Shown piece after piece: positions 19,426 to 28,400 of a DNA stretch of 64,000 bases. The stretch is taken from positions 1,337,501 through 1,401,500 of the forward strand of contig NC_044591.1 of the NCBI RefSeq assembly GCF_901933205.1. The letters run 5' to 3'. The notes under the pieces are model-generated. The model was not told the DNA's origin. It did not search any database and was given only the letters and a program-made list of their open reading frames with translations. Position numbers and translations under genes: made by a program. Source of the stretch: Camarhynchus parvulus. Taxonomy: Eukaryota; Chordata; Aves; Passeriformes; Thraupidae. Each line of letters opens with the position of its first letter. Position 1 is the first letter of the stretch.

Positions 19426-22400
19426 CTGTGGGGACAGCACAGAGCCATGGTGACACCAGGAGGGGGGCAGGGACACGGAGGGACACAGAGGGATGGGGGG
19501 ACATGGAGGGACACAAGGGACAGGAGGGATACGGAAGGACAGGAGGGACCTGGAGGGGCACAAGAGGGACACAGAGGATGGGGACATGGAGGGACACGGG
19601 GCACTGGAGGGACACAGAGGGACAGGAGGGACACAGAGGGACGCAAAGGATGGGGACATGGAGGGACACAAGGGACAGGAAGGATATGGAAGGACAGGAG
19701 GGACCTGGAGGGGCACAAGAGGGACACAGAGGGACAGGTGGGACAGGGAGGATGGGGACATGGAGGGACACAAGAGACAGGAGGGACACAGAGGAATAGA
19801 AGGGACATGGAGGGACACGGGGTACAGAAGGGACATGGAGGGACAAGGAAGGGATGGGGAGAGACACAGAGGGACAGGAGGGACACAGAGGATGGGGACA
19901 TGGAGGGACCTGGAGGGGCACAAGAGGGACACAGAGGGACAGGGAAGGATGGGAGGGACATAGAGGGACAGGAGGGACACAGAAGAATGGGGACATGGAG
20001 GGATGGGAAGGACACAGAGGGACACAGGGGACATGGAGGGATGGGAGGGACACTGACACAGGATGGGGACATGGAGGGACACAGAAGAATGGGGGGACAC
20101 AGAGAACAAGGAATGAGAGGGACATGGTGGGACAAGGAGCACAGGAAGGATGAAGGGAGATGGGAGGGACCCAGGGGACACGAGGGATGGGAGGGAGAGG
20201 AGGGACAGGCAGGGATGGGGACAAGGAGGGACAGGAGGGATGCACAGGGACAGAAGGGATACAGAGGGATGGGAAGGACATGGAGGGACACAGGGATGGG
20301 AGGGACACAGGACAGGGACGTGGAAGGACATGGAGGACGGCAGGGACAGGACACAGGGGGCAGAAGGGACACGGAGGGACACAGAAGGATGGGGACAAGG
20401 AAGGACATGGAGGGCCAGGAGGACAAGGGACACGGAGCACAGGGGGGACACAGGGGACAGGGGGACACAGGGGGAGCTGGCCAGCAGCGCTGGTGTCACC
20501 TGAGATGCGGGAGCCCCCGAAGGGCTGCTGGGCCACCACGGCCCCCGTGGATTTGTCGTTGATGTAGATGTTGCCGGCGGCGTGGCGCAGCACCCGCAGG
20601 GACTCCTCGATGGCAGCCCTGGCAGGGAGGACAGGGATAGGGGCAGCCTGAGCACAGCCCGGGGGCTGCAGAGCCACCAAACCACGCAAAGAGGGGCTTG
20701 GGGCCCCTCCAGAGGGGTCTGGGGCCCCTCCAGAGGGGTTTGGGTCTCCTCCAGGGGGGTTTGTGCCACCTCCAAAGGGGTTTGGGTCCCCCGTGCTCAG
20801 TTCCTGCCCCCAGGGGTTTCACACACACACACACACAGCCCCTGCATTTTCCCTGCCTTGGGTTTTTTCTCTTTCTCTGTTTTCACTTCACGGTTATAAA
20901 TCAAAGGTTGTTGTCCCTCATTATCCAGTGGGGCTGTGGCTGCCCCACCCCTGGCAGGGTCCCAGGCCAGGCTGGAGGGTCTGGAGCTCCCCGGGGCAGT
21001 GGGAGGTGTCCCTGGATCAGCTCTAAGGCCCCTCCAGCCCAGAATTCTGCGACAATTTTGGGTCATTCTCTCTGAGGTGACACCACTCCTTGCTCTCCTC
21101 GTGCTGAGTGGGCCGGGGGATCAAAACATTGCTTTGGGATCATTCCTCACTGGAAAAAAAAAGCTTTTTTGGGCTAAGAACACCCCAAAAAAACGAACTA
21201 AGCTGAGCTTGCAAACCATTCATTTCCTTCCTTGCAGGAGGAGCAGCAGAAGGAAGGAAAGGAAAAGGGGGAAGGAAAAGGGGAAAGGGGAAAAAGGGAA
21301 AGGGAAAGGGGAAAGGGGAAAGGGAAAAGGGAAAGGAAAAGGAAAGGAAAGGGGAAAGGGGAAAAAGGGAAAGGAAAGGGAAAGGGGAAAGGGAAAAGGG
21401 AAAGGGAAAAGGGGAAAAGGGAAAGGGAAAGGGGAAAGGGAAAAAGGGAAAAGGAAAAGGGGAAAGGAAAAGGGGAAAGGAAAAGGGAAAGGAAAAGGGA
21501 AAGGAAAGGGGAAAGGAAAAGGGAAAGGAAAGGAAAGGAAAGGAAAAGGAAAGGAAAGGAAAGGAAAGGAAAGGAAAGGAAAAGGAAAGGAAAGGAAAAA
21601 AAGGAAAGGAAAGGAAAGGAAAGGAAAGGAAAGGAAAGGAAAGGAAAGGAAAGGAAAGGAAAGGAAAGGAAAGGAAAGGAAAGGAAAGGAAAGGAAAGGA
21701 AAGGAAAGGAAGATGATATAGGAAGGAAGATCTGTGGCTCAGTGGAGATGGGAAAAGCACCCCCAGCTGCTTTTTGGGGGAATTTTCGGGAGTTTTGGGA
21801 CTCACTTATCCTGGGCGAAGATCGCCCCCGTGAGGCCGTACGGGGTGGAGCTGTCGATGAGCTCCAGCACCTCCCGGTAGCGATCCTCGGGGTACACGAA
21901 CACCGTCAGGATGGGCCCGAAGATCTCCTGGGGGGCAGGAAACACCACAAACTGTCAGGATCAACCCAAAAATCCCATACAAACCAACAGGATGGGCCCC
22001 AAAATCTCCTGGGAATGCAGAAATGGAATGCAAAAATCCCATAAAAACCATCAGGATTGGCCCCAGAAATCCACACATCCCATAAGGATCGGCCCAAAAA
22101 TTTCCTGGGAGCTCAGAAAATCCCACAAACTGTCAGGATCCACCCCAAAAATCCCATAAAAACCATCAGGATTGGCCCCAAAATCTCCTGGAGGCCAAAA
22201 GATGACACAAACCATCAGGATCAGCCCCAAAAAGCCCACACACCCTGTCAGGATCAGCCCTAAAACCTGCACACCCTGTCAGGATCAGCCTGAAAATCTG
22301 CTGGGAATGCAGGAAACACCACAAACCGTCAGGATCCACCCCAAAAATCCCATAAAAACCAACAGGATGGGCCCCAAAATCTCCTGGAGCCCCAAAAACA

Positions 22401-25400: not shown

Positions 25401-28400
25401 AACCCCGTGAGCATCGGCCCAAAATTCTGTGCAGCCACAAAGTGTGAGGATCAGCCCTAAAAAACCCACACAGCCTGTCAGGATCAGCCCCAAAATCACC
25501 CGTGAGCCCAAAGAACAACACAGATGAGGAGGATCAGCCCTAAAAAATGACAAATCTCGTGAGGATCAGCCCGAAAATTGCCCAGGAGTCAAAAAGTCAA
25601 TGAGGATTGGCCTGGAAATCTCCTGTGCAGCCCAAAAAGCAACACAGGATCACCCCAAAGAACAGCACAGCCCATAAGGACCGGCCCCAAAAACAAACAC
25701 ACACTGTCAGGATTGCCCCAAAAACTGCCTGTGAGCCCAAATTACACAGACCCCGAGGATCAGCCCCAAAACCCAACAAAACCTGGGAGGATTGGCCCCA
25801 AAATCCCCCAAAAAAATGAAGATTGGGCCAAAAATCTCCTGGGCAGTGCAAGTAACAACGTACCTGTCAGGACTGGCCCCAAAAACAACACACACACTGT
25901 CAGGATTGGCCCCAAAATCTTCTGTGAGCCCAAAAAGCAACAGGCACAGCGAGGATGGTCCCAAAAATTCCCAGTGAGCCCAGAGAACCCCAGGTGCTGT
26001 GAGGATTGGCCCACAAAAATATCCAAACCCGGCACAAAAACCTCCTGTGAGCCCAAAAACCAACACAGCCCATGAGGATCAACCCTAAAAACTCCTGTGA
26101 GCCCAAAAACCAACACAGCCCATGAGGATCAACCCTAAAAACCTCCTGTGAGCCCAAAAACCAACACAGCCCATGAGGATCAACCCTAAAACCTCCTGTG
26201 AGCCCAAAAACCAACACAGCCCATGAGGATCGAGCCCAAACTCTCCCCGAGTGGCCCCAAAATCTCCCAAAATCTCAGCCCAAGCCCGGGGTCAGCCCCA
26301 GGAAGGAGCAGGAGCTGCCCCACCCCAAAGAGCCCGACCCCAATGCAGGAACCCATTCCTGGGGGAGCCCTCCCAGAGCAGGGTTGGGGTGGGATCCCAC
26401 TGGATTTGGGGTGGGATCCCAGAGGCATTTGGGGTGGGATCCCACAGAGATTTGGGATGGGATCCCACAGAGATTTGGGATGGGATCCCACAGGGATTTG
26501 GGGTGGGATCCCAGAGGCATTTGGGATGGGATCCCACAGAGATTTGGGGGCCACGGGTTGGGGGCCCACACTTGGTCCCCTGTGGGATCCCGTTGGGTGG
26601 GATCCCAGGGATTGGGGTGGGGTACCCCACACCTCCCTCATTATGGGATCCCACTGAGATTTGGGATGGGATCCCACAGGGATTTGGGATGGGATCCCAT
26701 AGGCATTTGGGATGGGATCCCACAGAGATTTGGGGTGGGATCCCACAGAGATTTGGGGTGGGATCCCACAGGCATTTGGGGTGGGATCCCCCACATCTCC
26801 CTCATGATTGGGGTCCCCACAGGGATTTGGGATGGGGTACCCCACAACTCCCTCATTATGGGATCCCACTGAGATTTGGGATGGGATCCCACAGGCATTT
26901 GGGGTGGGATCCCACAGGCATTTGGGGTGGGATCCCACAGGCATTTGGGATGGGATCCCACTGGGATTTGGGTGGGATCCCGCAGAGATTTGGGGTGGGG
27001 TACCCCACACCTCCCTCATTATGGGATCCCACTGAGATTTGGGATGGGATCCCACTGGGATTTGGGATGGGATCCCACTGGGATTTGGGATGGGATCCCA
27101 CAGGGATTTGGGATGGGGTCCCCACATACCCCCTCAGATGGGGTTTGGGATGTGGGATCCCCCCACCGCCCTTTGGTGGGGTCCCAGGGGTCCCCTGTTG
27201 GCCACAGGATTGGGGGGGCCCACCTCTCATGTGTGGTTGATTTGGGTGGGTCCCGGATGCCAAGGGATTTGGGATGGGATCCCGGGCCCACACCATTTGG
27301 GATGGGGTCCATGATGGGGTCCCTGCCCCAGGGGATTTGGGATGGGGTCCCACAGGGGTTTTGGGATGGGGTCCCAGGGGTCCCTTCAGGGATTTGGGAT
27401 GGGATCCCACAGGGATTTGGGATGGGGTTCTCCCACACGATTTGGGGTCATGGTCCCCCTCCATGTGGGGCCCCTGCAGGGATTTGGGGTGGGGTCCCAC
27501 CTCTTGAGGGTCAAGGGGATTTGGGATGGAGTCCTGGGGGTCCCACAGGGATTTGGGATGGGGTCCCACCTCGATCCAGATTTGGGATGGTCCCAGTCTG
27601 ATGCGTCCCACAGGGATTTGGGACAGGGATCCCTCCACACCTCTCTCATGATGGGGTCTGCAGGGATTTGGGATGGGGTCCCACAGGGCCAGGGATTGGG
27701 GGGGGGACCCAGGGGGTCCCACACAGGGATTTGGGATGGGTCACCTCTCAGGGGGTAGGATTTGGGGTGGGGTCCCACCTTCCCCCATGGGTCCCGGGGG
27801 ATTTGGGGTGGGGTCCCAGGTTTCTGATGGGGTCCCATGGGGATTTGGGGTTGGGTCCCACCTTGGGGTCCCGGGGATTTGGGGTCAGGGGGTCCCACCT
27901 CTGTTGATGGGGTCCCAGGGGATTGGGGGGTCCCCACCTCTCTCATGTGGGGTCCCGGGGGGTGGGTCCCACCTCTCATGTGGTGTCCCAGGGGATTTTG
28001 GGGTTGGGTCCCACCTCTCATGATGGGGTCCCACAGGGATTTGGGGTTGGGTCCCACCTCTCTCATGATGGGGTCCCAGGGATTTGGGGTCGGGGTTGGG
28101 TCCCACCTCTCTCATGATGGTGTCCCAGGGGATTTGGGGGTTGGGTCCCACCTCTCTCATGATGGGGTCCCGGGGGTCGCTGCTCTGCACGATGCACGGC
28201 TCCACGTAGAAGCCCACGCTGTCGTCGCAGCCGCCGCCCGCCAGCAGCGTCAGGCTGGGCGAGCTGCGGGCGTGCTGCAGCCAGCGCCGGATCCGGGCAA
28301 AGGACTGCGCACAGGGCGGGGGGCATGGAGAGGGGAGCTGGGGGCTGCAAGGGGGGTCTGGGGGCTTGAAAGGGGGGTTGGGGTCTTGTAAGGGTTGGGG

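What the first reader, a model, noticed from the sequence alone, without database searches (positions are those of the whole stretch)
21928..26270. Intron 12 array seeded by the exon 13 splice acceptor and coding start
Seen in sequence: the real boundary reads CCCAGGAGATCTTCGGGCCC on the transcribed strand and starts EIFGPIL. The 4.3 kb upstream in the transcript is a tandem array whose units keep CCCAGGAGATTTTGGGGCC then CATCCTG, plus the neighbouring intron bases (CAGGAAACACCACAAACTGT on the plus strand, which also flanks the true exon). Dozens of units would read [11 protein letters not shown] if spliced. Inference: the array arose by repeated duplication across the junction, leaving dozens of decoy acceptors that the spliceosome must ignore or may use.
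Basis: partly seen in the sequence, partly recalled or inferred. Interest (0 to 1): 0.82.

Follow-up and report, generated by a model that had tools for sequence, protein, structure and literature searches.

The report
Intron built from its own splice-site copies
A 6.2-kilobase intron of a metabolic gene, probably in a bird, consists almost entirely of mutated tandem copies of its own two splice sites with the neighbouring exon edges, a fresh example of the 'exon stuttering' recently described in chickens.

Summary
The gene is ALDH4A1 (minus strand). Upstream of exon 13 lie 41 tandem copies of the acceptor junction (intron tail plus up to 34 nt of exon head), 40 with the AG aligned, above every shuffle. 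The other end of the same intron holds 14 copies of the exon 12 donor junction. Self-similar repeats cover 98% of the 6,224-bp intron, leaving one 92-bp single-copy stretch. Exon 7 has a fresh junction-crossing duplicate (32/32 exon bases).

This is 'exon stuttering', published for chicken in 2026 (PMC12954441): a new member of a known kind. It is two-sided, lies on a 7.9-Mb contig, and falls below the published bit-score cut-off.

Repeated crossing is supported only at the donor end. All 44 exon-like decoy acceptors lead to stops; the first decoy donor matches the true 9-mer and would add 15 amino acids in frame. Copies differ from the exon mainly at third codon positions, suggesting that they preserve older exon sequence. 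Decoy use is untested: no RNA.

The parts
21806..21927 (-). ALDH4A1 exon 13 ([41 protein letters not shown]); its first ~20-34 nt are the seed
21928..26270 (-). acceptor-junction array: 41 aligned units (intron tail + exon head) between 25924 and 21988, main spacing 83 bp; above about 25,300 degraded, with one aligned unit only
26279..26370 (-). 92-bp single-copy stretch between the two arrays, the only uncovered stretch of 30 bp or more in the intron; possible relic of the original intron (inference)
26371..28151 (-). donor-junction array: 14 aligned units of exon 12 tail + GT donor + intron head between 28120 and 26603; nearest units closest to the exon, far units diverged; the lowest part repeats mainly the intron side
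28107..28151 (-). 45-nt in-frame, stop-free extension ([15 protein letters not shown]) that would be added to exon 12 if the first decoy donor (GT at 28106, 9-mer identical to the true donor) were used
28152..28304 (-). ALDH4A1 exon 12; its last ~15-25 nt seed the donor array
36882..37020 (-). junction-crossing duplication at the exon 7 acceptor: decoy acceptor with exon start at 36989, 32 exon bases identical to exon 7, 108 bp upstream; bounded by GGCCCTGCT in intron (37020) and exon (36849)
29892..30118 (-). tandem copies of the donor region of the 48-nt exon 30166-30119 (GTGAGCCCAGAGCAGCCCCAGG; two exact and one with 3 mismatches beyond the true one); intron side only

Best explanation
Intron 12 is an exon-stuttering intron. 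Small tandem duplications crossed each of its two exon-intron junctions and left extra copies of junction plus exon edge on the intron side. These are silent as long as the splice site nearest the intact exon body is used. The copies then expanded by slippage or unequal exchange until repeats made up nearly the whole intron (98%). The acceptor array comes from one or few old crossings and was later homogenised inside the intron. The donor array has been renewed recently at the exon edge. Exon 7 shows the first step, a single recent junction-crossing duplication bounded by a 9-bp repeat. The products are decoy splice sites. Decoy acceptors are probably kept out by exon definition, with nonsense-mediated decay as backstop; the nearest decoy donor is the one most likely to be used. 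Shown: copies, positions, strand, frames, gradient, coverage, codon-position bias. Inferred: order of events, slippage or microhomology mechanism, and splicing outcome.
For: Copies are confined to their own intron and strand: of 20 exon ends tested against 10 introns (18-mers, <=4 mismatches), only the exon 12 donor (10 copies) and the exon 13 acceptor (41 copies) recur, both in their shared intron; the one other match is a single stray one (exon 14 donor in that intron) (that run used a wrong start for exon 7, whose duplicate was found and confirmed). 41 acceptor units and 14 donor units (14 of 14 with GT) stand above shuffled maxima of 31 and 28. Self-alignment covers 98.4% of 6,224 bp. Donor gradient rho = -0.84; acceptor none. 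Third-codon-position bias. The coding sequence over the 11 exons placed stays open. Exon 7 shows an early-stage duplication. The published chicken phenomenon matches in border position (>90% within 1 base of the exon border), exon length (20-187 bp, median 36), copies (1-44) and span.
Against: Neither array of intron 12 reaches the published 42.1-bit screen threshold: best hits are 40.1 bits (exon 12) and 28.2 bits (exon 13); only the exon 7 copy passes, at 63.9. The contig is large for a dot chromosome (C21 = 7,903,448 bp), while 190 of 236 chicken cases are on dots. Length variation between individuals, a main feature of the published class, could not be tested. Assembly error in repeats cannot be excluded without reads. 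Against the exon-definition step: with rough recalled weights 71 of 284 array GTs score at or above the weakest real donor of the gene, and seven score 2.9-5.6 against 3.3 for the true exon 12 donor, so donors are not clearly lacking. Against easy decoy use: only 7 of 170 array AGs score at or above the true acceptor.
Confidence: 0.9

Rival explanations
1. Ordinary intronic minisatellites of intron origin that resemble the exon edges by chance or by shared low complexity.
For: The window is full of other tandem arrays (285 rows; 46% covered), so arrays next to exons are expected here.
Against: Exon-head 24-mer matches: 42 against a shuffle mean of 0.005; 0 on the other strand or elsewhere in the window. 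Two different exon ends recur only in their own shared intron. The differences respect the reading frame.
Confidence: 0.03
2. The copies are functional: alternative acceptor or donor cassettes, or a splicing-buffer array kept by selection.
For: AG aligned and intact in 40 of 41 acceptor units and GT in 14 of 14 donor units. The true donor 9-mer recurs 7 times in the intron, and the first extra one gives an in-frame, stop-free 15-residue insertion; 11 of 68 GTs on the donor side score at or above the true donor.
Against: All 44 exon-like acceptors, read through without further splicing, meet a stop after 13-90 codons. The alignment anchors on the junction, so AG/GT retention is partly built in. 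Distal donor units have decayed.
Confidence: 0.07
3. Reverse direction or ongoing gene conversion: the exon edge was overwritten by array sequence.
For: Exon and array are physically continuous and share intron-side bases.
Against: EIFGP-L at this position is shared with solved mitochondrial enzymes 3v9j and 4oe5 (mouse and human by recall), so the exon sequence is older than the array. None of 40 units has the exon's C at base 6, so exon and array have not been converted to one another recently at that site.
Confidence: 0.04

Closest known systems
Sequence stuttering / exon stuttering in chicken (Hron et al. 2026, PMC12954441; abstract, sections 7, 8 part 1, 9 and 16 read, other passages by word search)
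   Same: Direct tandem copies of an exon edge with its splice donor or acceptor inside the adjacent intron; exon parts of tens of bp starting at the border; intron almost wholly repetitive; exon itself intact; potential alternative splicing noted by the authors; a minority of cases off the dot chromosomes (46 of 236 introns); repeat expansions mentioned in other birds.
   Different: Here both exons flanking one intron have seeded arrays and repeats make up 98% of it; the copies are too diverged for the published bit-score threshold; copies carry a third-codon-position signature. I saw no description of these three in the parts read; the supplementary list of 115 genes could not be opened, and the main text does not mention ALDH4A1.
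Tandem-repeat introns of GC-rich 'hidden' avian genes (PMC6792250; passages only)
   Same: Introns composed of tandem repeats in GC-rich avian genes.
   Different: The passages seen do not describe repeats derived from exon edges.
Intron gain or sliding by tandem duplication of exonic proto-splice sites in Drosophila (Lehmann et al. 2010, PMC2891723; passages only)
   Same: A duplication spanning a splice motif turns exon sequence into intron sequence.
   Different: There a duplication creates a new intron or moves its position; here an existing intron is filled and its position is unchanged.

Membership tests
Exon stuttering (Hron et al. [quoted passage not shown]
   41 acceptor and 14 donor units, same strand, own intron only
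Exon stuttering (Hron et al. 2026) | Copied source lies within 1 base of the exon border and spans it (>90% of published cases) | tested here: met
   The blast hits shown start at exon 13 base 1 (12 of 16 hits shown) and end at exon 12 base 153 of 153 (3 of 3); alignments run across both junctions
Exon stuttering (Hron et al. 2026) | Exon part 20-187 bp | tested here: met
   Blast hits of 20-25 bp for exon 12, 21-23 bp for exon 13 (12 of 16 shown), 32 bp for exon 7; up to 34 nt by alignment
Exon stuttering (Hron et al. 2026) | Intron heavily covered by repeats, exon intact | tested here: met
   98.4% of intron covered by off-diagonal self hits; joined 11-exon reading frame open
Exon stuttering (Hron et al. 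2026) | Blastn-short bit score at or above 42.1 (the screen's noise filter, not part of the authors' definition) | tested here: not met
   Intron 12: 40.1 and 28.2 bits at best; exon 7 duplicate 63.9 bits passes (20 shuffled controls gave no hit of 20 bp or more)
Exon stuttering (Hron et al. 2026) | Location on a dot chromosome (strong association, not required: 46 of 236 chicken introns are elsewhere) | tested here: not met
   Judged by size and repeat density only: C21 is 7,903,448 bp; tandem coverage 0.46 in the window, 0.20 and 0.15 next to it, 0.05 and 0.06 at two distant C21 loci. The contig is not named
Exon stuttering (Hron et al. 2026) | Intron length differs between individuals | not testable with these tools
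   no reads or second individual available

The most novel reading that the evidence does not exclude
Stuttered exon copies are a fossil record of the gene. Copies left in the intron keep synonymous codon states that the living exon has since lost, so comparing exon with array dates each junction crossing and reads past exon sequence within one genome. In addition, the two-sided decoy array makes splicing of this gene noisy in a predictable ladder, with a 15-residue in-frame insertion at the exon 12/13 boundary as the first rung.
Probability: 0.3. Interest if true: 0.72.

Novelty: new member of a known kind. Interest (0 to 1): 0.5.

Why it matters
It adds a two-sided case to the minority of exon-stuttering introns found off the dot chromosomes: junction copies from both flanking exons until an intron is essentially made of its own splice-site repeats (98%). 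Its arrays fall under the published screen threshold, which suggests that older, diverged cases are undercounted. The locus is a natural test of how splicing chooses the true site among about 40 decoy acceptors and 7 extra donors that are letter-for-letter identical over nine bases. The codon-position signature, if confirmed with other birds, would give a clock and a direction for the process.

Tried and rejected
Chance similarity: rejected. Array growing by repeated re-seeding from exon 13: no support. Decoy acceptors as coding alternatives: each of 44, read through without further splicing, meets a stop after 13-90 codons. G-quadruplex cause: the donor array has 11 motifs on the + strand and 1 on the other, the acceptor array 0 and 3, so no common G4 explanation for both.

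Codon-position test: acceptor columns from all 41 units, donor columns from the 4 most distal of 14 units. The 4 proximal donor units show no mismatching base in the columns counted and the 6 middle ones were not counted.

Generality screen: of 140 kinase-domain hits listed, 25 were screened (24 loci), chosen by hand for contig size. 16 lie on small contigs (at most 1,076,630 bp) and 9 on large ones. Strong same-strand junction copies (score >=73) were found at 4 of 16 small-contig hits (L010, L012, L014, L018; tandem coverage 0.43-0.80) and 0 of 9 large-contig hits. Other small-contig loci with tandem coverage 0.34-0.56 (L009, L011, L013, L019, L020) gave none. In the re-run with scores (9 of the 25 hits) the highest opposite-strand score was 44. 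Weak same-strand matches (L009, L013, L019, scores 33-42) are at noise level and not counted. In the same test 3 of 11 ALDH4A1 exons had copies (1, 11 and 41), none on the opposite strand.

Papers: seven searches returned one paper using the stuttering terms and none holding ALDH4A1, intron, birds and tandem repeat together. One search, on competing donor sites, gave nothing used here.
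Full report
What was checked. The window is C21:1337501-1401500 of a 1.05-Gb genome in 1343 contigs; C21 is 7,903,448 bp long. The gene on the minus strand is ALDH4A1 (name recalled): the profile TIGR01236 hits ten stretches of C21 in this window, exon by exon, and the exon 13 peptide matches solved mitochondrial delta-1-pyrroline-5-carboxylate dehydrogenases. I placed 11 exons between 42724 and 19313 (exon 7 start corrected to 36881). The joined frame is open to the final stop.

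The acceptor array. The first 24 bases of exon 13 recur 42 times at <=6 mismatches between 21928 and 26270, never on the other strand and never in the rest of the window; 200 shuffles gave a mean of 0.005 and at most 1. A junction query of 30 intron and 36 exon bases finds 41 units. 40 have the AG in place; the 41st aligns only past the junction. Exon-side matches run from 16 of 20 to 27 of 34 bases. Spacing is mostly 83 bp, with 50, 96 and 116 among the variants.

The donor array, which the finding does not mention. At the other end of the same intron the last bases of exon 12 plus the donor (GACCCCATCATGAGAGAG|GTGGGACCCAACCCC) recur. 14 units align, all with GT. The four nearest units match the exon in every exon column counted, apart from small gaps (identities 29/29, 51/53, 42/43 and 48/50 over the whole alignment); the four most distal differ at three of 20 exon columns by majority. 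Similarity falls with distance (rho = -0.84, p = 0.0002), unlike the acceptor array (rho = 0.03, p = 0.85). Off-diagonal self-alignments cover 98.4% of the 6,224-bp intron. The only stretch of 30 bp or more without a repeat partner is 26279-26370, between the two arrays.

Specificity. Among 20 exon ends tested against 10 introns (18-mers, <=4 mismatches), copies appear for the exon 12 donor (10) and the exon 13 acceptor (41), both only in their shared intron. The only other match was one stray match of the exon 14 donor in that intron. That test used a wrong start for exon 7, which led to the discovery that exon 7 itself has a junction-crossing duplicate 108 bp upstream with 32 of 32 exon bases identical. 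It is bounded by GGCCCTGCT in the intron (37020) and in the exon (36849). It looks like the first step of the process and hints at microhomology; the hint is one case and is inference. The donor of the 48-nt exon at 30166-30119 has intron-side tandem copies as well.

Direction and history. Copies differ from the exon mainly at third codon positions: 117 of 337 cells against 64 of 739 in the 41 acceptor units, and 10 of 28 against 0 of 52 in the four distal donor units. Taking columns as units, p = 0.0003 for both together and 0.001 without CpG columns. Sliding the frame by 1 or 2 abolishes it (p = 0.95, 0.96). A purely intronic or chance origin would not respect the exon's frame, so the exon is the source. 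If exon and copies both drifted, an excess at third positions of roughly two to one is expected (inference); the observed excess is larger, but only 51 columns exist and neither columns nor units are independent. I read it as suggestive that the arrays keep older synonymous states of the exon (for example T at exon base 6 in 40 of 40 units where the exon has C). Two of the four differing acceptor columns are third-position CpG sites and could also be decay in the copies.

Splicing consequences. The true donor 9-mer GAGGTGGGA recurs 7 times in the intron (9 times on the whole minus strand of the window, the true one included, 0 on the plus strand). Any score based on those 9 bases must be equal for them. 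The first, at 28106, would add 45 nt, in frame and without a stop: [15 protein letters not shown]. The next four add 94, 137, 179 and 253 nt and shift the frame; the last two (582 and 651 nt) are multiples of three but contain 2 stops each. On the acceptor side all 44 AGs followed by an exon-like hexamer, read through without further splicing, lead to a stop after 13-90 codons, so their use would be expected to give nonsense-mediated decay (established pathway; not tested). Of 284 array GTs, one scores 5.6 (CAGGTACGT at 25863), six more 2.9-3.2 (the true exon 12 donor has 3.3), and 71 reach the weakest real donor (-1.7). Weak downstream donors, that is exon definition, is my preferred but only moderately supported reason why decoy acceptors would be ignored (inference).

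What is known. Hron et al. 2026 (PMC12954441) describe 'sequence stuttering' in chicken. [quoted passage not shown] They also report extensive length variation between birds and mention repeat expansions in other bird species, and suggest replication stress, repair or meiotic exchange. The present intron meets their stated criterion. By their blast task its two arrays reach only 40.1 and 28.2 bits, under their 42.1 cut-off, so their screen would probably miss it; only the exon 7 duplicate passes.

Generality in this genome. Strong junction-spanning copies occur at 4 of 16 hits on small contigs and 0 of 9 on large ones (noise and controls are given under Tried and rejected). Tandem-repeat coverage is 0.46 in the window, 0.20 and 0.15 in the adjoining 10-kb stretches and 0.05-0.06 at two distant C21 loci. 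The locus thus looks like a stuttering island on an otherwise ordinary contig. The sample is small.

Verdict. A real and well-supported feature; a new member of a kind described in 2026. Its additions are two-sidedness, near-complete filling of the intron by repeats, a further case off the dot chromosomes, invisibility to the published threshold, and a codon-position signature. Decoy use, variation between individuals and conservation in other birds remain untested.

Noticed in passing
window 36882-37020: Exon 7 acceptor has a recent junction-crossing duplicate 108 bp upstream (in phase, but with a stop), bounded by a 9-bp repeat; looks like the first step of array formation.
   Followed up: yes
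window 29892-30118: Tandem copies of the intron side of the donor of the 48-nt exon (GTGAGCCCAGAGCAGCCCCAGG), giving further decoy donors.
   Followed up: partly
L010 (C186), L012 (C597), L014 (C674), L018 (C663): Junction-spanning copies of kinase-gene exons in tandem-repeat-rich small contigs of the same genome; L010 has copies of both ends of one exon.
   Followed up: partly
window 26279-26370: 92-bp single-copy stretch between the two arrays, perhaps all that is left of the original intron.
   Followed up: no
window 1-64000: 285 tandem-repeat rows; 46% of the window is tandem repeat, against 5-6% at two distant loci of the same contig.
   Followed up: partly
window 21250-21728: Long GGAAA/AAGGA purine-rich satellite in the following intron, starting within about 80 bp of exon 13's donor.
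   Followed up: no
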